The notes under the pieces: model-generated | Seen by the model: the letters and a program-made list of their open reading frames with translations, nothing else | What the model was told of the DNA's origin: nothing | The model's database searches: none | Source: Rhizophagus irregularis | Taxonomy: Eukaryota > Glomeromycota > Glomeromycetes > Glomerales > Glomeraceae | NCBI RefSeq assembly: GCF_026210795.1 | Contig: NC_089429.1 | Coordinates: 124,001-188,000, forward strand | Reading direction: 5' to 3' | Length of the DNA: 64,000 nucleotides | Translations under genes and position numbers: made by a program | Part shown: positions 6,750 to 35,615 of the stretch, piece after piece | Numbering within the stretch: position 1 is the stretch's first letter | Layout: each line of letters begins with the position of its first letter

Positions 6750-6756
6750 ACCTGAT

Positions 6757-9378: not shown

Positions 9379-9431
9379 GATCTGATTTATAGCTTAACCT
9401 CCCACCCCCTCTTAAATCAGCTGATTCCTGG

Positions 9432-11249: not shown

Positions 11250-11267
11250 ATAATCACCAAATATGGA
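11250..11267. repeat. 18-bp target site duplication, left of LINE B
   Basis: ATAATCACCAAATATGGA here is repeated at 33377-33394 on the other side of LINE B. It occurs once, uninterrupted, in the element copy at 52969-52986 (reverse strand), which is the empty site. Confidence 0.9.
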
Positions 11268-11407
11268 GGATCATCGCAACTCTTTCCTGAATTTTTGAAA
11301 ATACTAATAAAAATTTATTTTTGAAATTTTCGTTCGAAAATTTCTAAGTGCTCGTTTAAAATACTAATATTTCCACAGTTGCTTTCCTCTTTACTGAGCT
11401 CTAAACT
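11268..11407 (+). promoter_or_regulatory. LINE B 5' leader
   Basis: 140 bp between the target duplication and the ORF1 start at 11408. LINEs usually carry an internal promoter here, but I see no motif that shows it. It begins ggatcatcgcaactctttcc. Confidence 0.5.
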
Positions 11408-12962
11408 ATGTCTACACCTCCAGCTCCTTCTGTTATTAACCCGGATATTCCGCCGCCACCACGTCCTGTTATTTCTACTCCCTCTGGAGACCGACCTTTA
11501 TCTCCCACTAGTACCGCCGGCGCGCCCAACAAACGTTCACGCGTTGTCTCTGATGACGCTATGAATGTTGATATAACTTCACCTTCTGCTTCAGCTCCCA
11601 TCCTTATTTCTACCGCTCCCTCAGGTCTTCCTGTCAACAAAGTCCAAGTGCTTACATCTCCTCAAAATACTACTACTCCTGTTGAAACTGTCGACGCTTC
11701 TATCCATACTCCCTCTAACACCAGTGGTAAAGGCAAAGCTGTCGCCTTTGATGTCCCTGAACGACGACCATCCCCCGATGGTAATGCTGCCGCTATTAAA
11801 TCCGCTCCTTCTCGTTATTATGCTGCGGCATATTTACGTGATGCGCCTGACGCGTTCAAAATTAAATTCACCACCAATCGCTCCATGTGTGACGAAGTGG
11901 ATTGCTCACTCTCCCGTTATTCCTCCTATGGCGCCCGTGCACGCTGCGATGGATCAGGCGATAACAAGAAAATCCTTGTCTTCTTCAATGATCAGCATGA
12001 TTTTACCGATTGTATCAGCTCCCCACGTGCCGATCTCCTCAATTTGGCCTTTAGTCACTACTCCCCTGCAGACGCCAAGCTCAGTGATGAGATGAAGTCT
12101 TTGTTCGTCACTGATATCCCGCTTTTCCTAACTGTGACTCAAGTCCGTCAAGCTTTCTCCAGATATGGCACTGTTATCAAGTGCAAACTTACCCCTAGAA
12201 AACATTACTATAATGGACATATCCAGTTTTCTTCCGCGGATGCAATTACCCAATTTAATGATATTTGGGCGATCATTTGCCTTGGTAATTCTTTACGTGT
12301 CTGCCCGGCATCTTTTTCGAAATCCCAACGCGATAGCCGCAGAGAACATGTTGCTATCCTTGCCGGCATCCCTAAGAATATTAAAGAAGCTGATCTGTTA
12401 GAAATCGCTACTCACGTCAACGCTAAGACCCTTAACGTCCCTTTGTCTATCAGTTCCTACAAACCTAAACCTTATGTATATTTGAATTTCTCCTTATTTG
12501 AATCCCTTGAAGCTGCCAAAGAAATGACCGTGGCTTTCCGCGGCAAAGGATTAACATGGCACCCTCCCAATGAAGCACAAACTTTATGCCATGTTTGTGG
12601 GTGTCCTGGTTGTTCTCCCTCTGTATGTAATCCACGTCCTACTCGGAAAGTGGACGATCGCCTTAACAAACTTTATTCTCGTTTTAATGCTGGACCTAGA
12701 CATGGTCGTCAGGATTCGCGCCAATCACGTGACAATTCCACTTCTCGTTCAAGATCGCGTTCCAACTCTAGATCCCGCAATAATAATTCCTCTTCATCCC
12801 GTTCCAACAACAACAATAATACTTCTAACACTTCTCGTCCCAATACTTCTCAAAATAACAACCGGAACAATACTAATACTAATAATCATAGGAACAATGA
12901 AAATTCTTCTGGTTCTACTCAACCTCCACACAAACCTCATTCTGTCAATTCTACATCACCTA

Positions 12963-13345
12963 CACAGGTCGAAAGATGCCAAATCAGTCACCAACCAGGC
13001 ATTAATCGGGTATCCGATTGATGCCTGGTTGGTAACTGATTTTCTCAATTTGATACCAATCGGGCTGCCCGATTGATAGTTGATTTCCGCCAAAATCCGA
13101 CAACAACCGGCTATCATCCGGGCTGCCCGATTGGTGACAAATTGAGAGTCAATTGATGGCCGAACGATGGTCAATTAATGGTCAATTGATAACCGATTGA
13201 TGACTTATTGGATTTGCTTAATCCGACAGCAATCGGGCAGTATCTGATTAATGACCGATTGGTAGCGTATTAATGACCGATTGATAATGTATTGATGACT
13301 GATTAATAGCTGATTTGTAATAGCCGATTGGTAAAATTGGTTTTA
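12963..13345. repeat. Left terminus and subterminal repeats of the CACTA element
   Basis: After the 12-bp CACAGGTCGAAA terminus, the motif CCGATTG(G/A)T or its complement CAATCGG recurs in both orientations about every 20-30 bp (for example 13004-13024, 13054-13076, 13118-13133, 13192-13200, 13225-13232, 13255-13262). In plant CACTA elements such repeats bind an element protein; that role is inferred here. Confidence 0.85.
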
Positions 13346-13732
13346 TAAAATGTTTATGATGCACCTATTTTATTTATTATATATTTATTTACGCATTATT
13401 AATTACAAATTATTAAAAACAATGGTTTTAATTCCAGCCTACATGCGCTTTATTAATTACAATTTACAATATATTCAAAAATTTGATTGTACAATCATAG
13501 TTGTAAATATAATTTATTTCAAATGGGAACTTATATCAATGTATACAATCATAATAAAAGTAATATGATTAAGCGAAAATCGGTACGTTTTTGTTTCTGA
13601 TTGTTCTGATTGCTAACAGGAACGAATTTAAAAATAAAGAATTAATAAATGTTATACATTAAACGAACAAACAAGTTATTAGAAATAAATGGTGATGAAA
13701 TCTTGCTTACCAAACTCCTAACGAATGTCCGT

Positions 13733-15240
13733 CAGAAATCGAGTTTTCCGATTACTGAAAGTAGGAACAGCTTAAAGACCATCATGTTAATCATCGAATG
13801 AATGAAATTCGTCAAAATCGATAGATATACAAATTCGTTTCTAAAAATGAAATAAAATACGGTTCATTTCTGATTTTTTGAGAAATCTTGCGAATTAGAA
13901 TATGAATAAGGGCGTACATTAATCGATCAATCAACATGAGCAACTATTTAATAAAGAACCGCTGACAAATGCAATAATTAATTTTCGCTCCTCGGCACAG
14001 TACTTCTACATTTCGTCAGAAATCGAGTTATCCAATTGCTGAAAGTAGGAGCAATTTAGATCTGACCGAAACGTTAATTATTGACACGTTAAATATCTCA
14101 AACGAATTGTGCTAAGAATGAACTCACCTTTAATAAAGTTCGTCAAAATCGGTAAATACACAATTCGCTATTGATCGCAGAAAATATGTCGGTAGGGTGA
14201 GAATCGGCAGTGTTTTTGATTTTTCAAGAAATCTCACGTATTAGCTAATCTTACAAAATATGAGTAGTAAGGTGTACGTTAATCAATCAATCAACGCAAC
14301 CATCAAATGGCACGACCACTACATCTTCACCGCTAACAAACTGTAGACTTTTCGCTCCCTTTGATATACATGAAAAAATACACATAACTATGTTATATAT
14401 CAAAAAAAAAGCATACCTATTTGTACCATTAGCCCACCATAAAACTGGTCATAGTTACTGATATCAGAAATCGAGTTTGCCGATTGCTGAAAGTAGGAGC
14501 AATTTAAAGATACCGTCACGTTAATTATCTAAACAAATTGTGCTAGGAATGAACTCACCTTTAAAGTTCGTCAAAACCGGTAGTTACACTTCGCTTCTGA
14601 TTGAAGAAAATGAATTTAAAAATATATGTCGGTATGGTGAAAATCGGCAGTGTTCATTTCCGATTTTCGAGAAATCTCATGTATTAGCTAATCCTACAAA
14701 ATATGAGTAAGGCATACGTTAATCAATCAATCAACGCAACCATTAAATGGCACGATCATTATTACATCTTCACCGCTAGCAAACTGAAGGCTTTTCGCTC
14801 CTTTTGATATACATGAAAAAATACACATAACTATGTTATATATCAAAAAAAAAGCATACCTATTTTACTCCATTAGCCCACCATAAAACTGGTCATAGTT
14901 ACTGATATCAGAGATGAGTTTGCCGATTGCTGAAAGTAGGAACAATTTAAAGATACCGTCACGTTAATTATCTAAACGAATTGTGCTAGGAATGAACTCA
15001 CCTTTAAAGTTTTTCAACACCGGTAGATACACTTCGTTTCTGATTGCAGAAAACGAATTTAAAAATATATGTCGGTAGGGTGAAAATCGGCAGTGTTCAT
15101 TTCCGATTTTCGAGAAATCTCATGTATTAGCTAATCCTACAAAATATGAGTATATCAATCAATCAACGCAACCATTAAATGGCACGACCACTACATCTTC
15201 ACCGCTAACAACAAACTGAAGGCTTTTCGCTCCTTTTGTC
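13733..15240. repeat. Large tandem repeats in the left arm of the CACTA element
   Basis: The block gaaatcgagtttgccgattgctgaaagtaggagcaattt recurs near 13735, 14025, 14467 and 14912. The last three are about 440-445 bp apart and share long flanks (gaatgaactcacctttaaag, tgatatacatgaaaaaatacacataac, ggcacgacc.ctacatcttcaccgct). The first unit is shorter and more diverged. No open frame spans the units, so noncoding. Confidence 0.85.
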
Positions 15241-15289
15241 TTTGAAGTATCCGTTACGAGATAGTATTCCCAACGTGTGATTTTACAAA

Positions 15290-15450
15290 AAATGTCCGCC
15301 CTTGATGTGGAAGGTACTTAGGAACCACCTCGTCTCCCGATTAATGAGACCCTAGATCAGAGGAGGCTAGCCTATCAGGTACAAGCACCTTACAACTTCA
15401 TTCCTAGGTAGTCAAAAATCTCGGGTGGTTCCAGACCACAGCGTACTATA
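15290..15450. other. GC-richer structured block, function unknown
   Basis: This stretch is markedly less AT-rich than its surroundings. ggaaccacc near 15331 pairs with ggtggttcc near 15424, with further short complementary stretches between. No open frame or tRNA cloverleaf is clear. It could be the core of a small inserted element or a structured RNA; neither is shown. Confidence 0.4.
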
Positions 15451-16718
15451 TGTAAAAATATGCATGAAAAAAAATACATAACTAGAATGTTATATCAAAA
15501 AAAAGTATACCTATTATTACTTACCATAATACCATTAGACCCATCAGTTAGGCTTGCCTCTAAATGAAGTTTATCAAAATCGGTATATATACATTTCATT
15601 TCTGATCGCTGAAAACGAATAAAGTTTATTTCGTTAGAAGTGAAGATCAGTACAAATATTCGCTTACCATTTTTAAAGTTACACTCAGTAAAATGAAAAT
15701 CGAAAGAAATATGCATTGTCGTTCTATATTTCACTTCGATTGAGTGTGAGGAGCAAAGAAGTATTAAATTCATCAAAAAATCGGCATGTTCTCGCACCTA
15801 TAAAAACAGGAGGATATTTGAAACACAACTCAATGAAACCTGTTTTACAAAAAGGAAATAGTGAAGGTTAGCGATAAATAACAGTTTCCGTATCTGTCTC
15901 CAGAATAAAATTGGAATATTCCCGTTCACGATTGTTGAATGTGAAAGTGCTTATTATTATTAATTTGTTATAAACTCGTACAGCTGAGTAACTGACATAC
16001 CAGTATGTCAACCATTGTCAGTGAACGAGTCCAATAATTTCACACCATATATTATGGGCGTAGAAAGTAAACGGTGATATAATAAGCAAAAATAAACAAA
16101 AAATAGGCAACGCATTCGTAAGATGGTATAAGAAAAATTCGCAAATAGGCAAAACGGCAAAAGAAGAAAAATTCGCAAATAGGCAAACGGCAAAAAGAAG
16201 AAAAATTCGCAAATAGGTAAAAAGGTTGTTGTAAACAAAATGTGCTTATTTCCATATTTATTGTAATCAAACAGAGATCTGGCCAATCAGATTAAATTTC
16301 GATGATCCAGATCACTAATCAAATTGGACTATTTGCGTATTATAACAATCAGTATATTTGCAAATACGGATACCGATTTATTAGTTAGCCCGACTCGTGA
16401 AATTTACAAAATTTAGCAACTTTGCGTATATATGTCGATTTCTAAATTAATGTCAAAAATAATCTGGCTGGTAATCCGCAGCTAGATTAGCTGTATATCG
16501 GTATGATTGTCAGTTGATGAAATAAAATAAAAAAATTAGGTATTGTGAAAATTGAACCAAAAAGATTGTCAGTCTTTAATTTCTTTTCAATCTGTTTGAC
16601 TCAAGCATTATATTTACTGATATATTTATTAAATTTACTGATATTTATTAAATTTACTGATATATTTATTAAATTTACTGATATATTTATTTATATTTAT
16701 TAAATTTACTGACATATT
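15450..16718. other. Noncoding stretch of the CACTA element with short tandem repeats
   Basis: No convincing gene. It holds three copies of a 33-37-bp unit with aaaaattcgcaaataggcaaa (16131-16222) and a tatatttattaaatttactga array (16612-16715). A small open frame near 15495-15797 on the minus strand lies over repeat-like sequence and has no recognisable features. Confidence 0.6.
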
Positions 16719-17960
16719 TCATTTATTTTGTAATTTACTAATCGCCTTGGCAACTGGATTTTTTAATGGCCCATCGTAGCCTGATTTCGTCCAACTAGGC
16801 GCGCTATTCGGCGCCGTTTCTTCAACGTACTCACCAGGCTTGTACACCCGTTCACGCTTTTTATCGCCTTTTGTTGTATTACTGTCAACATAGTACAAAA
16901 ATCTGCGCAGCTTTGTTTTAAAATGAATTAGCATATGCCAGTTATATGTAACCCATTTCAATAAATTCACTTACAGTACTGGAGCGTCATCGCAGGTTAC
17001 GCACGACAATTATGTTTCGCTCGTCCTCGCTTTCTGAAATTTCCGGGCTATGATAGCCGTTTTCTGTGATTATTGGCCGCAATTCTTCGTTACTGAACTT
17101 TTCAATCAACGGATCATTAATTTTTTTTAAATTGTTGATCGTCTTTGATCTTTTTTTTCTTTTCTATTTTATAAAAAACTCGTAAATAAATAATGATGAT
17201 TAGGATGATTAGTAAAATATAACATTTATATTTACCTCCGATCATCGTGAATTTTGGTGTTTCCGTCCTGTTTCTTTCTTTATATCATTTTCTGATTTAT
17301 TTTTGACCCGAAGATTGTCCCTTTTGTGGCGGTGCCGCTGATGGATCATCTCGTATATGACACCTTCCCCTATGGTGTAGGTGTCAAGATCCAATGTTTT
17401 CATTAAATTTGGCACAATCGTTTTAACTACAAGATCCTTTTGAAGCTCGAACGTTTTTTCGATATCTAATTGAGTTTCCTGAGGCATTCTTGCCTGATTC
17501 CAGAATAGATCTCTCTAAAAATATATTATTATCAGTAAATTTATAAAAAATAAAAAATACAGCGAAAGTTTTGTTTACCCTTAATGCTTCTCTCAAATCT
17601 TTGGGCATTTCAGATACATGTTGGTATCGTCGTTCTTTTGACCTTTTTCTTTTCTTGTCATCTCTTGGCCTAGAATCAGAATCAAGAATTTGAGTGCCTT
17701 CCGGGTTTAATTCTATCAATTGTATATTGACCATTAAGCAGTGAATCAGAATGTTTAGAACACAATAAGCAGAATTATACGACATACTAAATGTACCTAG
17801 TTCTGATTCCGATTTTGATTCTGATTCCGAACTAGATTCGTATAAGATTTCTGATTCCGGGCTGCTTTTTGTATAAATTTATAAATATATCTCAATTTTT
17901 GATAAGTTAACTGACACGAAGGGTTACTTACTCTTCCTTACGAAGCTTTTTGTTTCCCAT
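16719..17960 (-). pseudogene. CACTA accessory gene, left copy (six exons, two nonsense codons)
   Basis: Exons on the minus strand: 17960-17932, 17864-17797, 17712-17579, 17514-17236, 17163-16975, 16910-16719, all with GT-AG introns and consistent phases, for 297 codons. The product starts MGNKKLRKE, then an acidic Ser/Glu stretch, a Lys/Arg-rich stretch, MPKDLREALR, a region ending IYEMIHQRHRHKR, YHSPEISESED, and a C-terminal SWTKSGYDGPLK. Two in-frame TGA codons (17244-17242 and 16989-16987) fall where the right copy has Arg and Trp. Homologous to 23544-25281 along its length. Function unknown; by analogy with plant CACTA elements it could be a terminus-binding (TnpA-like) protein, but no domain shows this. 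It is divergent from the transposase gene. Confidence 0.75.
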
Positions 17961-18657
17961 TTTGTAAACTCTATTGAAAGTTATGTTGAAAAAAAAAGAG
18001 AAAGTTATGTATCGGTTAGCCTCCGAGGTTCTCTGGGATAAAAAAGGTCCGGTTTTTTATCTATTAGGAAGCCTTGTTGGTAGAGGGCTTGGAAGCCTTC
18101 AGGCTTTTGACTTCGGTCGTTGCAGAAATCCAACGACAAGATTTTATAACTTTACTTACTATAAAGGACTGAAAGAACTGAAAATTTTAGACCAAAAAAA
18201 AAAAAGACTTATAATATGGTAAAAAAGAACAACGTTTCGCTCTGCAATATAATTAATTCGCGAATGTCGGTATCGTTCTTAACCCACCACGCGGTGCTGA
18301 CCCGCATAATATATTTTAATAAGGGTCAAGATGATGTCACCAGAAGGGTCAAGTCTGATATTTTTGCAACTAAATCATTTGAGCGAATTACCAAAACGGA
18401 CGGACCGCGTGATAATTTTCTGGTTTCGCTATAGTAAAACCCGATTAATATTAATTTTTCATTAATACCCCGTACAATTTCCTATCTTCACATGCCATTA
18501 AGCAATAATAGTCTATTCAGACCGGACTAATATATGAAATTGTACATATTAAAAGCTCTTTATTCGTCGATTTGACATTCATAAATAGGCTATAAGATAC
18601 ATACGTAGAAATTCTCAAATTTTTCATTGAACGCTTCGATCTTACTAAAACATAATC
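17961..18657. promoter_or_regulatory. Divergent intergenic region between accessory gene and transposase
   Basis: About 700 bp separate the starts of two oppositely oriented genes, so it should hold both promoters. A GC-richer block at 17998-18140 has short repeats of gaagcctt/ggcttgg. No core promoter motif is clear. A small open frame at 17974-18222 overlaps this block and shows no recognisable product. Confidence 0.4.
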
Positions 18658-21600
18658 ATGTCTACAAAACTTAGATATAAAGTATCATGTGATTGCAAGG
18701 AATGCAATGGCAAATATGTTGATGAAAGAACCAGAAAAAGACATCTAGATTTAGAGCGTCATTTAGCGTCTAGCGTTTCCGGATTTGTCCCTTTTTTACC
18801 CGGAAACAATCGGATTAAGCCAGCACATACCGTCTATCATAGTCCGATCGTAGAAGGATCATCAAGATCAAAAGAAATGACCGGACAAGAAGAGTCAACA
18901 TCATTTAATAATAATTATGAATCAGATTTTGCCGGTTTTGTCCCTCAAAAAAGGCGTAGACAAGACCAGTTTCGGGAACCAGAAACCAATAAGGAAAGCA
19001 ATGAACCGATTAATGAATATGAATATGAAGGTGACATTTCTCCAGAAGACAATATGGATTTGGACGACGATCCTGTTGAACAATTTGCTGCACCCGAAAA
19101 TGATTCAGAATTTGCATATCCCGACACAAATGTTAATATTGCGGATTCTTGGATATTAACATGGATATTCAAATATCAAGCAAGATTTTGCTTGCCGGAT
19201 GTTGCACTAGATTCTTTAATAAAGTTTTTTCATCAAGTATTAATGGATGCTAATCAGACGAGATTCAAAGATTTCCCGTCTTCTTTATACACTGCGACTA
19301 AGTTATTACGAATCGACAACCAATCTATGACTTACGCAGTATGTCCGAGCTGTAATACATTATATAATATAGCTGATGTTGTTGCGGATGAAGGATTTAA
19401 ATGTACGCATATAGAATTTCCAATGAAACCGAAGGAAAAATTTTGCGGAATGGAATTAACTGTGCAAGTACCGCATGGTAATGGAAATAAAAGACGCCCC
19501 AAATTGTTATTTCCATTGCCGAATTTGAAAATACAGATAAACAATTTGTACCAGAGACCAGAATTCAAGCAACAACTACGAAAATGGACCAATCGGGATG
19601 TAAATAATGGTATGTTAGCAGATATTTATGACGGTAAAATCTGGAAAACTTTTCCAGACACTTCAGACGTCCCATTTTTTACACCAGAGACCGCAGATTC
19701 CCACTTGGGAATTATGATTAATCTCGATTGGTTTCAGCCTTTCGAGTCATCTGTATACAGCTGTAGGGCTATTTATGGGGTTATTTGTAACCTACCGCGT
19801 GAAATTAGATTTAAAAAAGAAAATATGTTGACGCTTGGTCTACTACCAGGACCAAGCGAGGTTAAGTTACACAAAATTAACCATTATCTCACTCCGATTG
19901 TTGATGAGTTATTAGAGTTCTGGGATGGGATTGAGATTCCCGCCGCTGAAAAAAATATCCGATTGGCATTAATATGCTGTTCGAATGACATTCCTGCAGC
20001 GATAAGCTCTGCGGTCACATATCAGCATCAGTGAGCTGCCATAGGTGTTATAAAACTGCAAATTCAAATGGAAATGGAAATAAGTCAAATTTTGGCGGCT
20101 TTGATGATATGGTTGACTGGTTTGTAGAAAGAGATTTGGATGAACATCGACGGAATGCTGAGCTTTGGAGACTGTGTAAATCTGAGGAGGAAAGAAAACG
20201 TCATGTGAGTTCAACCCATGTTAGATGGTCCGAACTGCTTCGATTGCCGTATTTTAATCCGATAAGGTACCTTGTCGTAGATCCAATGCACTGTTTGTTC
20301 CTCAGAATAGCCCATTGGATAATTAAAAAATTATGGATCGATGGCAACAAGATCACGAAACAAGATCTAGAAAAAATGGAAAAGCGAGCAAAATACATAC
20401 AAATACCCGCGGATTTGGGGCGTATTCCAAATAAAATCGCAACTGGAGAAGGATTTTCCAGATTTACGGCCGACCAATGGAAAATGTTTGTTCTAATTTA
20501 TGCTATCCCGTTGATGTGGGATTTGCTCGCTGAACCAGATCGACAAATTTTGGGGAATTTCGTTAGAGCTTGTTCTCTGCTAGTTTATCGAATTATTGAC
20601 TGTGACATATTGAACGAAGCTCACGAACGTTTGCTCAAAGTTGCAACGTTAATTGAAGAAAATTATGGTCCGGAAAGAATAACCCCAAACCTCCATTTGT
20701 GTCTTCATATTGCCGATTGTTGCCGGGATTATGGTCCATTATATTCTTTCTGGTGTTTTTCCTTTGAAAGAATGAACGGTATCCTCGGTAGGTATTTTGT
20801 GAACTGTTTAATCATTTAAGCTTGCTAATAATTTATTAAATAATATATCAATAGGCTCTTTTCCCAATAGTAATCGTCAAATTGAACCCGAACTTTTACG
20901 AATTATAATGCGGAATTGGAGACTTGATAACCTTGTATCCGTTCAATCAAATAATGTTAAGCTTGTTGAAGCTTTAAAATTAATTCAACCACGATCAACT
21001 TCCGGAAGTTTGGCAGCTTACGATAATTTTAATTACACTGAGCTGTATCAATTTAGAAAGGTATTCTTCCAAGAAGTTGATGAAACGATTGTCGGTAGCG
21101 AACCATTTCCTGAAGAAATGCTTACGCCATGTAAAAATCGGGTTGCCTTGCCTGATGATATTTATCAAATCCTAACCGAATATTATAATATTGCTTACGA
21201 CTTGCAATTTGTAACAATTGCTGAGTCAACATCAACCAGTTCAAGAGATGCAATAGTTGTGCCAAATATGGTTGATCAATTTGGGCGGGTTAGGATCTCA
21301 GCAGAAGTGTTTGGATCGGCAATGGCGCCCCGATACCTGAAAAACGCGAATGTTTTGGCGAAATTTATCCAAAACAATGAAACGACCGACTTATTTCCAG
21401 GTCAGGTACAGTATTATTTTGAACATACTGTGAGAATTTCGGGTGAACTTAAAACACATCGATTAGTATTTGTTAAATGGTATAAACCGGCGCCAAACCA
21501 GAAAACCCGATTTTATACAAGTATTGATGGTGATGAAAAAAGCTCAAATATTGAACTTTGGCGAAATGAATTTTATGAGATAGAGCGAGATTGTTTAATT

Positions 21601-23059: not shown

Positions 23060-23094
23060 GTCTTATTTCGATATAATATTTGTCAAATAATAAA

Positions 23095-23348: not shown

Positions 23349-23543
23349 TCTAATGATTAATTGTCAAGATTTTAATTTATTAAATTTATTAATCATTTAA
23401 TTGTTAATTGTTAGAACAATTGAAAATTGTTAAAATTGTTAAAAATAATGAAAATAATCGATCTGAAAAAAAAATACTGATTTCTTTCTATACTGTGGAT
23501 ATTTTTATGTTTTTTAAAAAAATTTAAAAAATTTGAATTAAAT

Positions 23544-25281: not shown

Positions 25282-25299
25282 AGAGACTGTTTTATTAAC

Positions 25300-25490
25300 A
25301 AGTACTGACCAACCTTCCAACCAATCTTCCAACCAACCTTCTAACCAATCTTCCGACCAATCCTCTAACCAACAACCTTCCGATCAATTCTCCAACCAAC
25401 AACCTTCCGATCAATCCTCCAACCAACAACCTTCTGGCCAATCTTCCAACCAACCTTCTGGCCAACCTTCTGACCAACTTTCTGACGATG
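25300..25490. repeat. Short tandem repeats encoding Gln/Pro/Ser if translated
   Basis: Units of about 12-27 bp built on caaccttc(c/t)(a/g)accaa run from 25311 to 25485, directly after the stop of the accessory gene but in a different frame. In that frame they would encode PSNQ/PSDQ repeats ending DDDYLEMDD. It may be the displaced C-terminus of the gene or a 3' minisatellite. Confidence 0.6.
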
Positions 25491-25513
25491 ATTATCTTGA
25501 AATGGACGATTGA

Positions 25514-26141
25514 TGGTAGTGATTGTGGTGGTGTTGTGATGGTGGTGATTTCCTATATTTTGTATTCTATTTACCTATTTTTCACTAATAACCGATCCCC
25601 CCTCCCCTGCTTTTGCGAATTTTATGTATATTAATTAGTACATACAGTTAATTTTTTTTTTTTCTAAAAATACTTCCTTCAAATAATATTATTGTAATAT
25701 TTCTTTTTTCAATTATTTCTTTAATCATCCAACGATATTCTTTTTTATAAAAATCTTCGACTTTCTGCCTATTTTTTCTTTATTAAATATCATTCCTTGT
25801 ATATTCCCTTGTTTATTTTGTACACATTATTTCATCATGTATAGTCAAATGATAAATTTTCAGTGGTAATTAGAAGAATTATTAAATCTTTTAATACAAT
25901 TGGTGACAAAATTGTTTATTATTTAGAATAAATCATTTACTAGCTTATGCAATATAAAAGAATGTGGGTACATACATTTTTATTATGATTTCCATCATTG
26001 TTCAGTTTACTAGTAACAGTTAAAATAAGTCGGCCAGTAGTATCGAATTTTTATTCTTCGATAAGTCTTAGATCAGATAAAATCATAAAGCACATTTATT
26101 GAATGAGCATCAATCGGCTACATACAAATCATCTATTACAA
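25514..26141. other. Noncoding right arm of the CACTA element
   Basis: I see no gene or clear repeat here. It is very T-rich in the first half (25560-25800). Confidence 0.5.
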
Positions 26142-26382
26142 CTATTTGCAAAATAACGGACCAGCTAATTCGATTTTCGATTGCGTATGAATATTTCATA
26201 CGCAGTCATATACGCATAGTTAACTGCTAGAATTATTGTGATATAACTGCAGATGATTACATATGAAAAACTCAAAAAATGAGTTTGACGGTCTGGGCAG
26301 ATATTACCATGCGTATAACTGCGTATGAAAATTTCATACGCAGTCGAAAATGAATTAGGTGGTCCATTATTTTCGCAAATAG
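26142..26382. mobile_element. 241-bp foldback element with about 65-bp inverted repeats inside the CACTA element
   Basis: The left arm, ctatttgcaaaataacggaccagctaattcgattttcga..., pairs with the right arm, ...tcgaaaatgaattaggtggtccattattttcgcaaatag, and both contain gcgtatga.atttcatacgc palindromes. A third partial copy of the outer arm follows at 26388-26411. No target duplication is clear. Confidence 0.7.
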
Positions 26383-26404
26383 CTGTAAGTGGTCCGTTAT
26401 TTCG

Positions 26405-26764
26405 CAAATAGCTGTAATCTGTATCAATCGGACATATGCCTGATTGGTACCCGATTGACAATAATTCGACCTGCTGATAGCCGATTGATGACTGATGGTC
26501 AACAATATCCAATCGGCAACCAATCGGTCAACTTCCAATATAGATGACAGATGGCTGATTGTTTACCGATTGTTAAACTGGCACCAATCAGTCACCAATC
26601 GGCACCAATCGGTCATACAACTGATGTGTAGCCGATTGAAATAAATGCCTGATTGATGACCGGTTGGTATCTGAATGAATGAATCAGTAACAGATCAGCT
26701 ACCAATCAGGTACCAATCAGTTATATGACCGATTGATGATCGGTATATTATATTTCGACCTGTG
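26405..26764. repeat. Right subterminal repeats and terminus of the CACTA element
   Basis: CCGATTG/CAATCGG motifs recur in both orientations (26425-26457, 26472-26530, 26560-26640, 26690-26745), mirroring the left end. The element ends TTTCGACCTGTG at 26764. Confidence 0.85.
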
Positions 26765-27325
26765 CTACTTCTCCATCGGATAATCCTGCCCCTATGCTTC
26801 CTCAACATATTATTGATGAATTAAAGGCGCAGATTAAAGAGATCGCTACTACCCTTAAATCTCTTGACGAAACTGTTTCCTGGATGCAGGATACCATCAC
26901 GAATCATGATTATAGAATTTCTGAGCTTGAATCAATGATGAATTATGATTGCGGTAATCCCAGTGACTCAGATTTGTACCCACCTCATGACGATCAAGAA
27001 ACTCATTCCTATAATCATGGATGGGATGATACTCCAACCCAAGACACGAATTCTGGATTCAATCTTCCTCCCAATACCTCTTCTTCTCTTATGGACGTCT
27101 CTCCTAATGCTTCCTTCTCAGCCCTGGATCCTAGCTCCATCCTATCAAGACGACATGTCCCCTTACCTGTCTTCCGACCTACTAATACCACCCCTGATGC
27201 TAACGCTTCTCGTTTGCAATCAGAAATTTTTAATGTTACTACTACACAAAAGAATCTTTCTGCCCAACTTGGTTCGATTATGGAAAAGTTGGACTCCTTC
27301 TCTCCTTCAAAACCTTCCCCTTCCA

Positions 27326-30300
27326 ATGATTGAACACCGATTTATATCGGGTGCATCACAGGGATTTCACCCCCCTAATAGTGCGATACCTAATAATAAT
27401 AGTCCTAATACTCCCTCTTTTCCTTCTTTTTCTTCCCCTCTTATTAACTTTGGACAAATCAATGTTAATGGATTATGTTCCCCTGTTCGACAATTGCATT
27501 TGTTAAATTATTTTCTCCATTCTTCTTTTGGCGTTTTATCTTTAAATGATACTCGTCTTACTTCTTCTGGTGCTAGATTTATTTATCAAAATGAACATTC
27601 ACAACATAATTTTAAGTCCTATTGGGCTCCTTCCCCTTCTAATTCCCGACCTCATGATGGTGTAGGTCTTTTACTTCGCCACCCTTTACATAAACATGTT
27701 CAGAAGATTGATCCTTGGAAAGGTCGTTTATTAAAACTAGATCTTTTTTTTCATCAAACAAAAATTTCTATTATTTCTGTTTATATTCCTCCTTATCATT
27801 CTATTCATTATAAAGAACGTGATGCTATTTTTGCTCAACTTAATTTATGGCTTGATAAAGCCCGCTCCAATAACTATCACGTAGTCATCCTTGGCGATTT
27901 TAATGCAGATGAAATTTCACATTCACATCTTTCTCAACATCATTTAAAAATTTTACGATCACTTTCTTCTCGATATTTTACAGATCATCAATCCCATATC
28001 TCTTCAATTTCAGGTCCTAGTCCTACCTTTTATCATCAGAATGGTTCTTCAAGACTTGATTATATTTGGTCATCCCCTGGATTTCCTGCTCCTGGTCTTT
28101 TCTCTCAAGTTGAAACTTGTCCTAAGCTGAATGATAATCAATTTACTGATCATTGTGTACTTATAACGGCCTTTGACTTTAGCTCATGTTTCGCAATTTT
28201 ATCCAAAGCTCGATTAAAGCAGAAGAGCGAACAACGCACCATCTTTCTTTACAAAAACTTGAAAAATGACACTTGGAATAAATTTTCCAATGAAGTAAAC
28301 TCGCGTCTTGAGTTATACTTGACCACGCATCATCCTTCAATATCTTCAATTTCAGCTCTTTCATTGGACAAACTTTGGCACGCTCTTAAACGTTCTATTC
28401 TTGGTGGTGCCATTGATTCTCTACCATTCCAACACGTATCCAACACTCATCACCATAAATATTCTCCGGAACTTACTATGCTTATTGCTATCAACAAATT
28501 TTTGGATAGATTATTATTCAAATTGACCACTTCTAGGCCTAGTCGTCCTGCTCAAATTTCACAAATGATTAATTCTTTATCTACTCAATTAATCCTTCTT
28601 AAGTCTCTTTTGACAGATTATACTATACCTTCCTATAGTATAACACCGCTTCACACTTTTGTCAAATTTTTACGTTCACATAAAGCTCTGGTCTCAGCTT
28701 ATCTCTCCACGCAATTTCATCAACATCGTGTAGATTCTATTGAATATTTTACTGCTCTTCGAGATGAACATTTCTCTACATCTCCAAGCTCTTTTATTTC
28801 TTCAGCCCTATCAGTGGAACATCGCTCTATCATTCTTGATCGAGTCTTAGTTGTTATTGACTCCAAGCCTACATTACTTACTGATCCTTCCGACATCAAA
28901 CAAGCTGCTATTAAACACTTCCAATCGGTCGTTACTCCTCCTTTGGTCCAGTATTCTTCTACTGAATCATTTCCTCCGCGTTGGCAAAGAGCATATACTC
29001 CTCTTTCTGACTTTGATTCGTCCTTATATACTTCGGTTATGTCTCCTATTCTGACCGATGAATGGAAAAATACTATTAACTCTATGCCTAACAATAAAGC
29101 CTCTGGTCCTTCCAAGATCTCTTATGAGATGCTCAAACATTTAACTGGAGAAGCTTTTAATTTGTCCCTTGTACTAGCCAACGCTTGTCTCACTCATGGA
29201 GATATTCCTGCTGATTGGCGTGAAGCGCTTGTTTATCCCATACCAAAGCCTACTGAATTTGACGCCCAATTGAAGAATACGCGACCTATCACTTTATTGG
29301 AAACAGTACGTAAATGTGTGGTTAAGGTCGTTACTACTCGACTTTCAAAAATCCTAGCTGACAATCAAGTGCTTCAAGGTGGTAACTTTGCTGGATTGCC
29401 AGGCGGTTCTACTGACATTCCTATTAAGATGCTGGATGCCATTATTCATCAACGCCGTTTTGACAAATCTGATGACCAAGAATTATGGATTGTTTCTCAG
29501 GACATTTCTAAGGCCTTTGACTCAATTGATTTGAATATGCTTAGATTGGCTCTAATCCGTCTACATATACCTTCTTTGTTGATTAAATTTATCATTAATC
29601 TTTTTACTAGACGTAATAATAAAATTATTACCCATCATGGTGATACTTCTGGATACAGAGTTAGAATTGGTATTGACCAGGGTGAAATCATTTCTCCATT
29701 ATTATGGGTTATTTACTTGGATCCTTTGCTTACTACACTTAATCGAGAAACTCGTGATCCCTTTATCTTGAAATCTTCTGCATTATTGGATTATTCTCCA
29801 ATTGAATATGAACAACACAATCTTCCTGTTTCACATATTACATTTATGGATGATTCTACTTTAATTGCTTCATCCAAACGAGGAATTGAAGATCGCCTTT
29901 CCATTACTGCTGAATTTTATACTTTAAATAATACTCAAGCAAATTTAGCAAAATATATCCTTCTTTCTTCTGAACAATTTTCACAAACTATAGAGTTTGA
30001 TCTTTCTTTTTCTCCTTTAATTTTAAATCCTACCCTTACTTTAAAGGCGTTAGCCTTATCTACATCTTTTCGGTTTTTAGGTGTTTGGTTTAACCTTTCA
30101 GCTTCTTCTCGTTTCGTTCATAACCAAACTGTCTCCATGATCAAAGACATGGCCGCTCTACTCAGTTCTAAAAAACTTTTAGCACAACATGTAGCTTACC
30201 TTTATAACGTTGTCCTACTTCCGAGGCTAGAATTTCGCCTACAATCCACATTATTTGCTGAATCCACCATTAATCGCATGGTTTCTCCAATGCTTTCTCT

Positions 30301-33111
30301 TATTCGTCAGAAGGCTGGTTTGGCCTCAGTCACTCCTCTGTCTGCGCTTTTCACACTGTTGTCGTTCTCTATCCAACAAGCGTTCGGTCGATTTCTATCA
30401 TCTCATGTGGCTTCATGGCAAAGAATTTTTTCTCACCCTTCATATAAGCTTTTTGCTAATTATATGATTACATATCTCCAAGGATTTTTGGATTGTGATG
30501 CTTGTCCCTCTACTATTGATTTGGAACCATGGTCTCATACTTTTTCTTTACGAACACATTCTTTGTTCAATTCTTTATTGTTCTCTTCTCGATTGAATAT
30601 CACGTGGTCTTTATTGTTCCGACCTCTGAGGAAAGATTTACGTCCGGCGATTCCACTCCGGTCTATTTTACCAAAAGATTTATTTACTTCCATGAAAAAT
30701 GTTCGAAACAATTTTGGTACTCGTTTTCTTGCCCAACTGGTTTCTCCGTGTGGCTCTCGACTTCTCTCATGGAAAGATTTACGCTTTCTTAAACGAGTCT
30801 CGAACAAAGGATCTGTGCCTGCTTGGTTTACTTTTTTATTTAATCTTATTGTTATTTCTAATTCTTCTTCTTTTTTTGTTTTACCACAATTTAAGATTCC
30901 TATTTCTCATACAGTAGCTTCCATTTCTTTTATCGACGTTAGTCGAAATTATTGGTTTAACCCTCAATGGGCTATTTCTTTTAATCGTAATACTAACTCT
31001 TTTCTGGTTGGCCGTGTGATCACTACCTATCCTACTCCACGTAATGAAGCTCTTATTTCACATTGGATCGCGTCATCGGTTGATGACTTGCTTTCTGAAT
31101 TTACTGCATGCCAAGGTTGTGCCTCTGCTATTCCGCGATCCTCTACTTCTAAGACTTTGATTAAACGATGTCCCTTCGAAGGATGTTTTTCTTACGTTCC
31201 GTTATCAAGTTTGATCCGTTATCCTACGAAACCTCGTACTTATATACATGCGGATACTCGCTCAGTTTCACTTTCTGCCTCGTTAGGCTATGCCAAATCT
31301 CTTTTATTATTCCAGCTTTTTGCTCCGGTTCAACTACCTCCTATGACTGATCAAGTGTCTAGGACTTCCGATATCCAACTTCCTTCTTCGGTGTCTACAC
31401 TTTATATTGATGGTTCCTTCCTTTCTCCTCCTAGTCATCCGACATCCTCGATGGCCTACGCATGGACTGCTATAGATCCTGATAGATTTGTTTTGGAATC
31501 TCACTATAATATTATTTCTTCCATTTTTCCTTCTGCTTTACGTTCAGAAGTTTTTGCTTTATTACATGGATTAGGCTCCCTCCCTCGGAATTCTAAGATA
31601 ACTGTCGCCACTGATTGTGCTCAATTACTTTCTTTATGGTCTTTATATGTGGATGCTCCTTTTATTCCCAGAATGCTTAAAGAATCCAACCACCTTTTGT
31701 GGTTCTCCATACGCACTATTATGTTGCAAAAGAATCTGGATGTTACCTTGATCAAGGTCCCTGCTCATGCTGACGATCCTTTGAATAATCATGTGGATGC
31801 ATTAGCCAAAGCCGCTCATACTGACTCACAGCTTTCTTCTTGTCCACTATTGGATTCGATGGCTCCTTGCATTTTACAATTTAATTCCTTACCTGTGGAT
31901 AGAGCTTGGACTCGCACTCATGTAACTCGAGTTGACTCGAGTTGAACTCGCACTCGAGTCAGAAATTTCTTGACTCGAGTCAACCGAGATCACGTGGTTT
32001 ATAGTGCCGGCTGAACCTATTTGTAATTCCTGCCGGCACTATGACCATAACGGTCTAGGTAAAATTATGGATAAGTTTTTTAGCCCGCACTTTGACTCAA
32101 ATTAAGCTCGAGTCCTGGACTCCCGAGTACTCTTCAGTCAAAAAAATTCTTGATTCATTTTATCGAGGTTATTTCATCCATTCAGTCCAAAGCTCACCTG
32201 TGGATATGAATATCCGGAAATTTATTAGAGATATTTTTGACGCCAAAAGTCTTTTAACTCTTGCTGTATTACCAAGATTTAATTCCTATTCTTCAACTTC
32301 TGATATTGATTGGGCTTGTACCAAATTTTGTCTCAATAACAATAAGCAGTTTGCCTCTCATCGGAATGGCCGTTCTGAGTTTTGCGGTTTCCGTATCAAA
32401 TTACTTTTAGATATGCTTCCAACACTTACAACTCTTCAGCGACGAAAGCCTCATCTTTATGATCCAAGTTGGCTTTGTCCTCAATGTAACTCCTTTCCTG
32501 AGACCTTAGACCACTTGTGGACTTGTCCTTATATTTTACCAGAATTTAGCCCTTTAAATACTTTTAAAACACTTTTATTGGCTCTTCGGACTAATTATCT
32601 TGACAAGTTCTTTTCCGCGTCATCTTTAATACCTTTACCGGACTAATTCGCTGCTGAATTTATGTCTCTTGATTGTTGGAATTGTGACCCTCCTTCAATC
32701 TCTTGCCTAAGACTCGTACGAGGACTTATACCGACATCCCTTACAGAATTTCTTGGAACCTATTTTTCTCCACTTACCTTATGGTCTATCTTAGATACAC
32801 TGTTGCACAACTTTCATTTTGACCTTTATGTCCAAATCTGGTTGTGCCGTTCCATTTTCTTTCATCATTGGGAACTAGCCCAAGGCATTACAAAAAAAAT
32901 GAAATCATCAGCTCTTGGGCCTTCTTCTATTCTTTACCCTTCCTCTAACATTCCTCTTGACTCTTCGACACCTTCCCTGGCGACAGCTTCCTTGGATTCC
33001 TGGGTTTCTTGGGTTTCCTCTTCTATAATCCGTGGGGGATCTTGGATTTCACATTTGGATTTTTGGCGCCGCTTAACAGTTCAGCCTCTACTTAGGATTT
33101 CTTTTTGGTAA
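27326..33111 (+). pseudogene. LINE B ORF2 polyprotein (endonuclease-reverse transcriptase-RNase H), split by a MITE, one stop
   Basis: ATG 27326 overlaps the ORF1 stop. Without the MITE and one 11-bp duplication it has 1827 codons including the stop. APE endonuclease: INVNGL (about residue 45), GDFNAD (190), SRLDYIW (242), TDH (274). Reverse transcriptase: RPITLLE (about 653), AFDS, GEIISP and FMDD (about 840). RNase H: YIDGS (about 1360), SEVFALLHG (1407), TDCAQ (1429), HVDALAK (1489). A C-terminal zinc-knuckle CPQC...HLWTC lies near 1615. One TAA at 32644-32646 falls where LINE A has a Ser codon (TCT). The domains are otherwise complete, though the endonuclease has NDTR where most families have an Glu in QET. 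Confidence 0.9.
31902..32195. mobile_element. 294-bp MITE with 11-bp target duplication (Mutator-like?)
   Basis: ACCTGTGGATA at 31891-31901 is repeated at 32196-32206. The ends are short inverted repeats, GAGCTTGGACT and AGTCCAAAGCTC. Inside are several ACTCGAGT palindromes (31926-31982, 32106-32114) and an inverted pair tagtgccggc/gccggcacta (32001-32043). An 11-bp duplication fits Mutator-like elements; the assignment is inference. It interrupts the RNase H region end of LINE B ORF2. Confidence 0.8.
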
Positions 33112-33376
33112 CGGATTGGATCTTAGGACATGCTGGATAGTTGACTCACACTGGCCTTCGGGTAAAGTTGGGGTATGCGTATTCTGTAATAGTTTAGTTT
33201 TTCTTTACTTAATTTTATTTTGTTTAGATTTCTTTACTTGTATGAATCGTGAAGCTAGTTCTTTTTATTTTTTATGTTATTTTCTATATTTGATATTTGT
33301 AATATTGTTCGATTTGTTTGTTGTACTTTTCGTTTAAAATTAATAATAAAAGATAAAGTCATAAGACTGTTTGCTC
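33112..33376 (+). other. LINE B 3' UTR
   Basis: 265 bp from the ORF2 stop to the target duplication. The end, ttaataataaaagataaagtcataagactgtttgctc, is shared with LINE A. No poly-A tail. Confidence 0.8.
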
Positions 33377-33394
33377 ATAATCACCAAATATGGA
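33377..33394. repeat. 18-bp target site duplication, right of LINE B
   Basis: Identical to 11250-11267. It is followed by the last 36 bp of the TA-flanked element. Confidence 0.9.
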
Positions 33395-33432
33395 CTGTCC
33401 CAAATGTGTGACTATAAAGAGAGTTGACTGTA

Positions 33433-35304
33433 TTTCTTTTATAGATATTAGTCAAAATTATTTGTTTAACCCTTAATGGGCTATTTCTTTTAATCGCAAT
33501 ACTAACTCTTTCCTCGTTGGCTGTGTGATTATTACTTATCCTGCTTCGCGAAATGAAGCTCTTATTTCACATTGGATAGCGTCATCTGTTGATGACTTAC
33601 TTTCTGAATTTACTGCATGCCAAGGTTATGCCTCTGTTATCCCGCAATCCTCTACTTCTAAGACACTAATTAAACAATATCCTTCTGAAGAATGTTTTTC
33701 TTATGTTCATTTATCAAGTTTAATCTGTTACCTCACGAAACCTTGTACTTATATACACGCGGACACTCGTTCGGTTTCACTTTTTGCCTCGTTAGATATT
33801 GCCAAATTTCTTTTATTATTTCATCTCTTTGCTCCGGTTCGATTAGCTCCCGCGTTTAATCAAGTGCCTAGGATTTCTGGTATCCAACTTCCTTCTTCAG
33901 TGTCTACACTTTATATTGATGGTTCTTTCCTTCCTCCTTCTGGTCATCCGATATTTTCAATGGTTTATGCATGGACAGCTATAGATTCTGATGGATTTAT
34001 TCTTGAATCTTCTTATAATATAATTCCTTCTATTTTTCCTTCTACTTTACGTTCAGAAGTTTTTGCTTTATTGCATGGACTGGACTCCCTTCCTCGGAAT
34101 TCCAAGATTACTGTCGCTACTGATTGTGCCCAATTACTTTCCTTATGGACTTCGTATGTGAATACTCCCTTTCTTCCTAGAATGCTCAAAGAATCTAACC
34201 ACTTGTTGTGATCTTTCATACGAACTATTATGTCACAAAAGAATCTGGATGTTACCTTGATCAAGGTTCTTGCTTACGCTGACAACCTTTTGAATAATTA
34301 TGTGGATGCATTAGCTAAAGCTGCTCATACAGACTCGCATCTTTTTTCTCGATCGTTGTCCAAATTGCTAGCTCCTTGTGACTTACAATTTAATTTTTTA
34401 TCTGTAGATATGAATATCCAGAAGTTTATTAGAGATATTTTTGACGCTAAGAGTCTCTTAACTCTTGCTGTATTGCCAAGATTTAATTCTAATTCCTCTA
34501 TTTTTGATATTGACTGGGCTTGCACCAAATTTTGTCTTAACAACAAAACACAATTTTTCTCCCGTCAGAATGGTCATTCTGAATTTTGTGCTTTCCGTAT
34601 TAGATATGCTTCTGACGCTTACAACTCTTCAGAGACGAAAATCTCATCTCTATGACCTGAGCTGGCTTTGTCCTCAATGCAACTCGTCTCCTGAGACTTT
34701 AGACCACTTGTGGACATGCCCTTATATTTTACCTGAATTTAGCCTTTTCACTACTTTCAAAACACTCTTATTGGCTCTTCAATCCAATTATCTTGATAAA
34801 TTCATTTCTGCAACATCTTTAAAACCTTTGCCAGATTCTTTTACTGCTGAATTTACGGCTATTGATTGTTGGGTTTGTGACCCACCTTCGTCCTCCTGCC
34901 TGAGACTTGCACGTAGACTTATACTGATGTCCCTTACAGGATTTCTTGGAAATTATTTCTCATCATCCACTATATGATCTATTTTAGATACACCTTTACA
35001 TGACTTTCATTTTGACCTTTATGTTCAAATCTGGTTGTGCCATTCCATTTTCTTTCATCATTGGGAATCGAGTTTCAGCATCGCTAAAAAGATGAAATTG
35101 TCAGCTCTTAGGCCTTCTTCTATTTTTCGTTTTTCCTTCAATATTCCTCTTGATTCTTCGACACTTTCCTTGGCGACAGTTTCTTTGGATTCCTGAGTTT
35201 CTTGGGTTTCCTCTTCTATAATTCGTGGTGGATCTTGGATCTCGCATTTGGATTTTTGGCGCCGCTTAACAGTTCAGCCTCTACTTAGGACTTCTTTTTG
35301 GTAA
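33433..35304 (+). pseudogene. LINE A ORF2 remnant, RNase H and C-terminal zinc-knuckle region
   Basis: Continues LINE A across the insertion 10345-33430. YIDGSF (about 33913), SEVFALLHGL (34054), TDCAQ (34119) and the CPQC...HLWTC knuckle (about 34671-34719) match LINE B. It is broken by TAA at 33474, TGA at 34209-34211 (LINE B has TGG), a frameshift near 34605, TGA near 34975 and others. It retains the region that the MITE disrupts in LINE B, and so shows the uninterrupted arrangement. Confidence 0.85.
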
Positions 35305-35561
35305 CGGATTAGATCTTAGGGTATGCTGGATAGTTGACTCATACTGGCCTTCGGTAAAGTTAGGGTATGCATATTCTATAATAGTTTAGTTTTTCTTTAC
35401 TTAATTTATTTTGTTTTGATTTCTTTACTTGTATGAATCGTGAAGCTAATTCTTTTTATTTTTTATGTTTATTTTTATATATTTTGTAATATTGTTCGAT
35501 TTGATTATTGTACTTTTCATTTAAAATTAAATAAAAGATAATGTCATAAGACTGTTTGCTC
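35305..35561 (+). other. LINE A 3' UTR
   Basis: Closely matches 33112-33376 and ends at the 18-bp target sequence at 35562. Confidence 0.8.
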
Positions 35562-35615
35562 ATAATCACCAAATATGGACTGTTCCAAATGTGTGACTAT
35601 AAAGAGAGTTAACTG
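35562..35615. mobile_element. Right arm of TA-flanked element, copy 1 (host of LINE A)
   Basis: Contains the LINE target ataatcaccaaatatgga (35562-35579) followed by ctgttccaaatgtgtgactataaagagagttaactg, then TA (35616-35617). It equals the right arm of copy 2 (33377-33430) with two differences. The left arm is outside the window. Confidence 0.82.

What the first reader, a model, noticed from the sequence alone, without database searches (positions are those of the whole stretch)
11250..35615. A LINE that sits twice at the same base inside the same DNA-transposon family
LINE A and LINE B are both followed by ataatcaccaaatatgga plus the last 36 bp of a TA-flanked inverted-repeat element, in two separate element copies. 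LINE B has this 18-bp sequence on both sides, and a third copy (52969-52986) shows the site empty. So either the LINE is targeted to this site, or a LINE-carrying element moves as a composite. Site-specific LINEs are known for rDNA, telomeres and some RNA genes, and Xenopus Tx1L targets the DNA transposon Tx1D. A fungal LINE with a DNA transposon as home would be a new case as far as I know. The LINE also lacks poly-A, as many site-specific LINEs do.
Basis: partly seen in the sequence, partly recalled or inferred. Interest (0 to 1): 0.88.

Follow-up and report, generated by a model that had tools for sequence, protein, structure and literature searches.

The report
Two LINEs share one DNA-transposon home
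In this genome two related families of copy-and-paste jumping genes, each with its own short hitch-hikers, were found almost only at two fixed spots inside one family of small cut-and-paste jumping genes, where they pile up in head-to-tail stacks, so one mobile element serves as landing pad for a small community of others.

Summary
In the window an old LINE (LINE1) ends at 35561 against ATAATCACCAAATATGGA ('site 1'), whose first base lies 52 bp from the end of a small TA-flanked inverted-repeat DNA element. Inside that LINE sits a second copy of the DNA element (10345-33428), and inside that a full-length LINE1 (11268-33376) with site 1 on both sides. Genome-wide, 100 of 100 listed exact LINE1 3' ends abut site 1, as do 14 of 14 fetched 5' ends. 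Flanks beyond the element are unlike in 33 loci compared, and 5' truncation points differ, so targeting explains this best. A second lineage, LINE2 (endonuclease 75%, RT 81% identical), uses another site of the same element (82 of 87 listed ends). Each LINE has a SINE-like partner at its own site (37 of 38 loci; 21 of 21 ends). An ORF-bearing passenger with LINE2 ends also lies at site 2. One element copy holds 13 insertions over 24.9 kb. Closest known: Xenopus Tx1L/Tx1D (recalled). A new variant of a known kind; organism and LINE clade were not identified.

The parts
5..4618 (+). Outer (older) LINE1, first part (5-2050 and 2251-4618; element starts upstream of the window)
   Evidence: 80.5% and 87.8% nt identity to a LINE1 copy
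9440..10342 (+). Outer LINE1, middle part
   Evidence: 87.4% identity to LINE1 4938-5843
10345..11267 (+). Inner DNA element, left part (TA target at 10343-10344); ends with site 1
   Evidence: 97.8-98.3% identical to the element copy at 52933-54885
10621..10638 (-). Empty site 2 (AAAAGGATAAAACTACCA) in the inner DNA element
   Evidence: exact match
11250..11267 (+). Site 1, 5' copy of the target-site duplication of the inner LINE1
11268..33376 (+). Inner full-length LINE1 (11268-12963, 26765-31901, 32196-33376), interrupted by a 13.8-kb insert and a small insert
   Evidence: 94-98% identity in three pieces that together cover positions 1-7991 of a LINE1 copy
11408..12967 (+). LINE1 ORF1, part before the insert; RRM domain
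   Evidence: PF00076, E 6.4e-05
12964..26764 (+). CACTA-type DNA transposon inserted in LINE1 ORF1; ends CACAGGTCGAAA/TTTCGACCTGTG
   Evidence: Transposase_21 (tnp2) in ORF 18658-20031, E 1.2e-10; ends
27329..31921 (+). LINE1 ORF2 (to the small insert): AP-type endonuclease, reverse transcriptase, RNase H
   Evidence: PF03372 E 3.2e-12, PF00078 E 2.5e-17, PF00075 E 1.2e-06
33377..33394 (+). Site 1, 3' copy of the target-site duplication of the inner LINE1
33395..33428 (+). Right end of the inner DNA element; TA at 33429-33430
33431..35561 (+). Outer LINE1, 3' part, ending ..ATAAGACTGTTTGCTC
   Evidence: 84.5% identity to LINE1 5842-7991
35562..35613 (+). Site 1 plus right end of the DNA element that holds the outer LINE1; TA at 35614-35615
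52933..54885 (-). Another copy of the DNA element (TA at 52931-52932 and 54886-54887)
52969..52986 (-). Empty site 1
53600..53617 (+). Site 2, first copy of the SINE2 target-site duplication
53618..54592 (+). SINE2, 975 bp, inserted in site 2
54593..54610 (+). Site 2, second copy of the SINE2 target-site duplication

Best explanation
[quoted passage not shown] Their home is one family of short (about 1 kb), TA-flanked, inverted-repeat DNA elements that carry no long ORF in the copy checked. LINE1 inserts at site 1, whose first base lies 52 bp inside the right end; LINE2 inserts at site 2, about 630 bp further in and on the opposite strand. Shown: fixed 3' junctions, 15-18-bp target duplications, 5' truncations, empty sites, head-to-tail stacks, and a SINE-like partner found at each site. 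Inferred: the ORF2 endonuclease nicks the strand opposite the first base of the site; the freed end primes reverse transcription of LINE or SINE RNA; a second cut 15-18 bp downstream gives the duplication. Because the duplication rebuilds the target, later copies can land beside earlier ones and stacks grow. Amplification of the DNA element would supply new landing pads at little cost to the host.
For: LINE1 3' ends. One search lists 100 exact 19-mer 3' ends (217 places with at most 1 mismatch in the genome; the rest not listed). All 100 are followed by site 1: 89 with the exact 15-bp core (recount), 2 with one mismatch, 3 with one mismatch, 6 read (five with one mismatch, one with a 6-bp insert before an exact core). 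The joined 34-mer occurs 130 times with at most 3 mismatches, reversed control 0.

LINE1 5' ends. 14 of 14 fetched for this (of 40 listed) are preceded by site 1, at most one mismatch: 10 in the DNA element, 3 behind another LINE1, 1 behind SINE1.

What follows site 1 ('full' counts SINE starts at reference base 8 or less). After 46 LINE1 ends: element end 20, LINE1 full 9, LINE1 truncated 2, SINE1 full 8, SINE1 truncated 7. After 37 SINE1 ends: element end 14, LINE1 full 8, LINE1 truncated 2, SINE1 full 8, SINE1 truncated 5 (L053 by eye).

Independence. 33 outer flanks, no similar pair at E 1e-5. The 4 truncated LINE1 copies start at 4 points, the 12 truncated SINE1 copies at 11 or 12 (697 and 698 may be one; L053 not mapped).

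LINE2. Of 87 places listed, 84 have AAAAGGATAA with at most 2 mismatches behind (71 exact); two of these lie in a similar repeat, leaving 82 at site 2. The three full-length copies fetched have the site on both sides. All three element copies have site 1 empty (L107, L108; the L106 copy at C6:172991).

SINE tails. SINE1: 37 of 38 fetched loci (43 matches) at site 1, at most 2 edits. SINE2: 21 of 21 ends in 20 fetched loci (41 matches) at site 2, a few with 1-3 mismatches.

Empty sites with at most 3 mismatches: 385 (site 1) and 223 (site 2), reversed controls 0.

Domains: LINE1 ORF2 endonuclease, RT, RNase H, and ORF1 RRM; LINE2 ORF2 endonuclease and RT, ORF1 RRM.
Against: No activity was tested. 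The copies scored are the best-matching ones (40 of 341 candidates; 40 of 77 and 40 of 360 for the SINEs); old, diverged copies could lie elsewhere. The one search list was built to leave out ends followed by site 1, so 82 of 87 is not an unbiased rate. LINE2 exceptions there: 3 in a similar internal repeat of the element or a relative (L091, L102, L103), 1 at a degenerate site 2 within the element (L101), 1 followed by other sequence (C9:991462, only 15 letters seen). The SINE tails show no BLAST match to the last 500 bp of LINE1 or LINE2 even at E 1, so mobilisation by the LINE is inferred from the shared site alone. Both SINE tails end in ACACTTG(T/C)AAA, a likeness between sites that the model does not need. 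The terminal hairpins are not more stable than shuffles. No RNase H match in LINE2 at E 0.1. All evidence comes from one genome.
Confidence: 0.93

Rival explanations
1. A LINE-carrying composite DNA element moves by transposase, so one old insertion is spread with its home.
For: The LINEs lie inside intact-looking TA-flanked ends; outer flanks differ, as composite movement would also give. It may have moved some copies.
Against: LINE and SINE copies with different 5' truncation points start directly after the same 15 bp; stacks contain several copies; hundreds of empty elements exist; LINE2 sits in site 2 of element copies whose site 1 is empty.
Confidence: 0.04
2. Block or tandem duplication (unequal crossing-over) made the repeated junctions.
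For: Head-to-tail stacks with about 8-kb spacing exist and could partly grow by recombination.
Against: 33 loci have outer flanks with no similar pair; stacks mix LINE1, SINE1 and truncated copies.
Confidence: 0.02
3. Insertion is not targeted; copies in the element are merely retained because insertions elsewhere are harmful.
For: A non-genic home is safe for the host, so selection would act in that direction (reasoning, no call).
Against: The same site behind 100 of 100 listed LINE1 3' ends cannot come from retention alone; other bases of the same element would be just as safe.
Confidence: 0.01

Closest known systems
Xenopus laevis Tx1L in Tx1D, with Tx2L as a related element (Christensen, Pont-Kingdon and Carroll 2000; seen only as reference entries in PMC8869645, PMC6036668 and PMC6895275; details recalled)
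   Same: Endonuclease-encoding LINEs that use a specific site of a DNA transposon family as home; two related LINE families
   Different: Here two sister LINEs use two sites of ONE short DNA-element family, on opposite strands; each has a SINE-like partner; an ORF-bearing passenger with LINE2 ends shares site 2; LINE1 ORF2 has an RNase H domain; the host is not a vertebrate (inference)
R1 and R2 in 28S rDNA, with their non-autonomous SIDEs (PMC3414825, abstract read)
   Same: Fixed insertion site, 14-bp target duplications for R1, 5' variation, non-autonomous relatives at the same site
   Different: Home is a mobile DNA element, not a host gene; the SINE-like tails do not resemble the LINE tails, whereas SIDEs keep the LINE 3' end
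TRAS and SART telomeric LINEs (PMC7265360, passages read)
   Same: Two LINEs using one home repeat in opposite directions
   Different: Home is a dispersed DNA element with two distinct sites, not one telomeric repeat
MoTeR telomere-targeted retrotransposons of Magnaporthe (reference title seen in PMC8869645)
   Same: Site-directed retrotransposons in a fungus
   Different: Telomeric target; a different type of element by recall

Membership tests
Site-specific non-LTR retrotransposon (LINE) | Reverse transcriptase and endonuclease in one ORF | tested here: met
   PF00078, PF03372, PF14529 in ORF2 of LINE1 and of LINE2
Site-specific non-LTR retrotransposon (LINE) | Fixed insertion site with target-site duplication | tested here: met
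   100 of 100 listed LINE1 3' ends, 14 of 14 fetched 5' ends; three of three fetched full-length LINE2 copies with the site on both sides
Site-specific non-LTR retrotransposon (LINE) | 5' truncation with a constant 3' end | tested here: met
Site-specific non-LTR retrotransposon (LINE) | Endonuclease cuts the site in vitro | not testable with these tools
   no bench work
Tx1L/Tx2L system | Home is a DNA transposon family | tested here: met
   TA-flanked inverted-repeat element; the inner copy interrupts a LINE1 at TA
Tx1L/Tx2L system | Tx1-group position in an RT tree | not tested
   no reference LINE set was held; RNase H in LINE1 ORF2 speaks rather for the I-type group, by recall
Tc1/mariner-like non-autonomous element (the home) | TA duplication and terminal inverted repeats | tested here: met
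   TACAGTCAACTC.. at both ends, TA on both sides
Tc1/mariner-like non-autonomous element (the home) | Mobilised by a Tc1/mariner transposase | not tested
   no autonomous relative was sought
SINE | Lies at the same site as a LINE | tested here: met
   SINE1 37 of 38 fetched loci, SINE2 21 of 21 fetched ends
SINE | 3' tail shared with the partner LINE | tested here: not met
   no BLAST match to the last 500 bp of either LINE at E 1; only the last 10 letters of LINE2 and SINE2 are alike, 8 of 10
SINE | tRNA-, 5S- or 7SL-derived head | tested here: inconclusive
   B-box-like GGTTCGATTCC by eye (motif recalled); ARAGORN finds no tRNA; one sub-threshold Rfam match, Fungi_SRP, E 0.14, not in the head

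The most novel reading that the evidence does not exclude
One DNA transposon family is an evolving habitat. Two sister LINE lineages have split its sequence into two private landing sites, presumably through change in their endonucleases. Each lineage supports its own SINE-like element: the two share a head of about 730 bp but have different tails apart from the last 11 letters. LINE2 also supports a protein-coding passenger that looks to be under coding constraint. Template choice would rest on read-through target sequence annealing to the nicked strand rather than on a shared 3' UTR.
Probability: 0.45. Interest if true: 0.85.

Novelty: new variant of a known kind. Interest (0 to 1): 0.77.

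Why it matters
It gives two closely related endonucleases (75% identical) with two different, defined targets in the same DNA molecule, which makes the evolution of LINE target choice directly testable by domain swaps and cleavage assays. It shows a retroelement community using a cut-and-paste element as renewable habitat. The SINE-like partners share a head with each other but no tail with the LINEs, so they test what a site-specific LINE needs in a template RNA. Thirteen insertions in one element of about 1 kb also show how site-specific elements can build large repeat blocks.

Tried and rejected
Composite movement, block duplication and mere retention were considered and rejected as main causes (see rivals). 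The 46507 match of the 18-mer (3 mismatches) was judged chance, from its context. tRNA origin of the SINE-like elements was not confirmed. Terminal RNA hairpins were not significant. The passenger ORF had no Pfam match below E 0.3 and no PDB match up to E 1. The LINE clade was not resolved: PDB matches to R2 and L1 were about equal. One search's pattern was meant to catch 3' ends without site 1 and so found LINE2. In one search the SINE1 slice came out empty; the SINE comparison was redone and the SINE-LINE tail comparison. Rows not counted: L082 lacks a SINE1 3' end (so 37 of 38); L084 and L085 are LINE1 loci and were left out of the SINE count. Of 84 that pass, two lie in the similar internal repeat and were not counted as site 2.
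Full report
1. What is in the window. The 18-mer ATAATCACCAAATATGGA occurs exactly four times in the window. Reading the sequence and aligning it to single genomic copies of each element gives a nested structure. An old LINE1 copy fills 5-4618 (with a gap at 2051-2250), 9440-10342 and 33431-35561. It ends at 35561 and is followed directly by site 1 and the last bases of a TA-flanked DNA element. Within this LINE1, at a TA (10343-10344 and 33429-33430), lies a second copy of the DNA element, 10345-33428. Within that lies a full-length LINE1, 11268-33376, with site 1 on both sides (11250-11267 and 33377-33394). This inner LINE1 is broken by a 13.8-kb CACTA-type transposon (12964-26764; tnp2 transposase) and by a small insert near 31902-32195. 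A third element copy, 52933-54885 on the other strand, has site 1 empty and a 975-bp SINE-like element (SINE2) in a second site.

2. The element as home. The two ends read TACAGTCAACTC.. inwards, with TA on both sides. The inner copy sits in LINE1 sequence where the outer LINE1 reads GCTTC-TA-TTTC and the inner LINE1 reads GCTTCCATTTC, so the empty site can be read within the window. Without its SINE the copy at 52933-54885 is about 1 kb. Its only ORF of 80 aa or more, 52335-52973, lies mostly outside and starts in the element's last 41 bp. In the genome (146.7 Mb, 32 contigs) the empty form of site 1 with its flanks occurs 385 times and that of site 2 223 times, at most 3 mismatches; the reversed controls give 0.

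3. LINE1 is targeted. The LINE1 3' end 19-mer occurs 217 times with at most one mismatch. Of the 100 exact places listed there, all 100 are followed by site 1. For 89 the 15-bp core is exact (recount) and for 2 it has one mismatch. Three more with one mismatch were read and six: five with one mismatch, one with a 6-bp insert before an exact core. The combined 34-mer occurs 130 times with at most 3 mismatches, control 0. The 40 best 3' ends of 341 candidates all abut site 1, at most one mismatch. Of 40 listed 5' ends I fetched 14 for this test, and all 14 are preceded by site 1: 10 in the element, 3 behind a LINE1, 1 behind a SINE1.

4. Independent insertions. After site 1, 46 LINE1 ends lead to: the element end (20), a full LINE1 5' end (9), a truncated LINE1 (2), a full SINE1 (8) or a truncated SINE1 (7). 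37 SINE1 ends lead to 14, 8, 2, 8 and 5 respectively (one SINE1 case, L053, by eye). The truncation points differ (4 of 4 for LINE1; 11 or 12 of 12 for SINE1) and all start directly behind the 15-bp core. 33 loci with at least 60 bp beyond the element have no similar pair of outer flanks at E 1e-5. Copies therefore arose by many separate events at one site.

5. A second LINE at a second site. One search looked for LINE1-like 3' ends not followed by site 1 and listed 87 places, nearly all with the tail ..GTTTGCACA and then AAAAGGATAAAA. By script 84 of 87 have AAAAGGATAA behind with at most 2 mismatches, 71 exactly; leaving out two in a similar internal repeat, 82 of 87 are at site 2. The other five: three in such a repeat (L091, L102, L103), one at a degenerate site in the element (L101), one with other sequence (C9:991462, 15 letters seen). 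The list leaves out ends followed by site 1 by design. The endonuclease region finds 132 places in two groups, 77-100% and 70-74% identical to LINE1 (131 of 692 candidates scored). The three full-length LINE2 copies fetched, about 7.84 kb, have AAAAGGATAAAACT(A/T) on both sides. LINE1 and LINE2 ORF2 are 75% identical in the endonuclease, 81% in the RT and 55% over the RNase H region; Pfam finds RNase H in LINE1 but not in LINE2 at E 0.1. In all three cases the same element copy has an empty site 1 (L107, L108; for L106 the place C6:172991-173027).

6. SINE-like partners. SINE1 (1003 bp) ends ..CACTTGTAAA. Of 38 fetched loci (43 matches), 37 end against site 1, at most 2 edits, and one (L082) has lost its 3' end. 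SINE2 (975 bp) ends ..CACTTGCAAA(GG). All 21 ends in 20 fetched loci (of 41 matches) abut site 2, a few with 1-3 mismatches. The two share the first about 730 bp at 89%; the rest does not align well, except that both end in ACACTTG(T/C)AAA. Heads alone cannot tell them apart, so the assignment rests on tails. Neither SINE matches the last 500 bp of either LINE at E 1. tRNA origin is not shown.

7. A coding passenger. At C6, two 3.2-kb elements have LINE2-like ends (in the first, the first about 90 bp 84% and the last 500 bp 95% identical) around a 686-codon ORF unrelated to LINE2. The two copies differ in this ORF at 34, 25 and 63 first, second and third codon positions, which suggests coding constraint; against that, the second copy has two stops and many others have stops too. 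One search gives 69 matching stretches. By hand I make these about 24 loci at 56% identity or more, of which 12 have a LINE2-type 3' end 1.0-1.5 kb downstream. Residues about 283-488 also match other frames at 31-41%. No Pfam match below E 0.3 and no PDB match.

8. One element filled at both sites. C6:2948733-2973647 is one DNA element copy, 24.9 kb from end to end. It has nine insertions in site 2 (SINE2, LINE2 pieces, passengers) pointing left, about 630 bp of element core, and four in site 1 (LINE1, truncated SINE1, truncated LINE1, SINE1) pointing right (counting each piece as one insertion is my reading). The window itself is the right end of a longer site-1 stack: further LINE1 3' ends on the same strand lie at C1:109530, 117545 and 123622. 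The last is followed, by position, directly by the 5' end of the outer LINE1 (L085; window base 5 is LINE1 base 350).

9. How it works (inference). The constant 3' junction places the first nick opposite the first base of the site; the 15-18-bp duplication places the second cut downstream. Since the duplication restores the site, stacks grow. SINE and LINE RNAs with different tails use the same base; I infer that read-through target sequence on the RNA pairs with the nicked strand. PMC7265360 (passages) reports that target-like sequence behind the SART1 tail raises accuracy, as in R1Bm; PMC6895275 (passages) says that target sequence in the RNA matters for R1Bm and several other site-specific LINEs. 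The Tx1L/Tx2L work was seen only in reference lists.

10. What is known. PMC11075540 (passages) lists SINE and LINE families, Tx1-, R1- and I-type among them, in Rhizophagus irregularis; the passages seen do not mention fixed insertion sites. Searches of the open library showed no title on a LINE of this fungus group with a DNA-element home; several lists were capped (for example 15 of 478, 12 of 137), and subscription journals are mostly missing. That the genome is R. irregularis is my inference from size, contig number and composition, recalled, not tested. The clade of the LINE is not determined.

11. Limits. One genome; best-scoring copies; no experiment; tandem growth by recombination not excluded; the composite route may have moved some copies.

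Noticed in passing
L151:2393-5612 (C6:2956393-2959611) and C6:2951648-2954810: 3.2-kb element with LINE2 ends and an unrelated 686-codon ORF, at site 2; differences between two copies are concentrated at third codon positions, though the second copy has two stops.
   Followed up: partly
window 12964-26764: 13.8-kb CACTA-type transposon with a tnp2 transposase ORF (18658-20031), ends CACAGGTCGAAA, nested in LINE1 ORF1.
   Followed up: partly
window 48358-49611 (-): A fragment 63-64% identical to LINE1 and LINE2 over most of its length: a possible third, older LINE lineage; its 3' end and site are not known.
   Followed up: no
window 4619-9439: About 4.8 kb between two parts of the outer LINE1, with two overlapping ORFs of just over 200 aa; one has a weak, sub-threshold STN1_2 match (E 0.0027).
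   Followed up: no
window 10720-11155 and 53082-53490: The DNA element holds internal repeats of about 147 bp with CATTCGATTCGTCT motifs; LINE2 occasionally lies at a similar position in such a repeat.
   Followed up: partly
window 31902-32195: Small insert with ACTCGAG-rich repeats that interrupts LINE1 ORF2.
   Followed up: no
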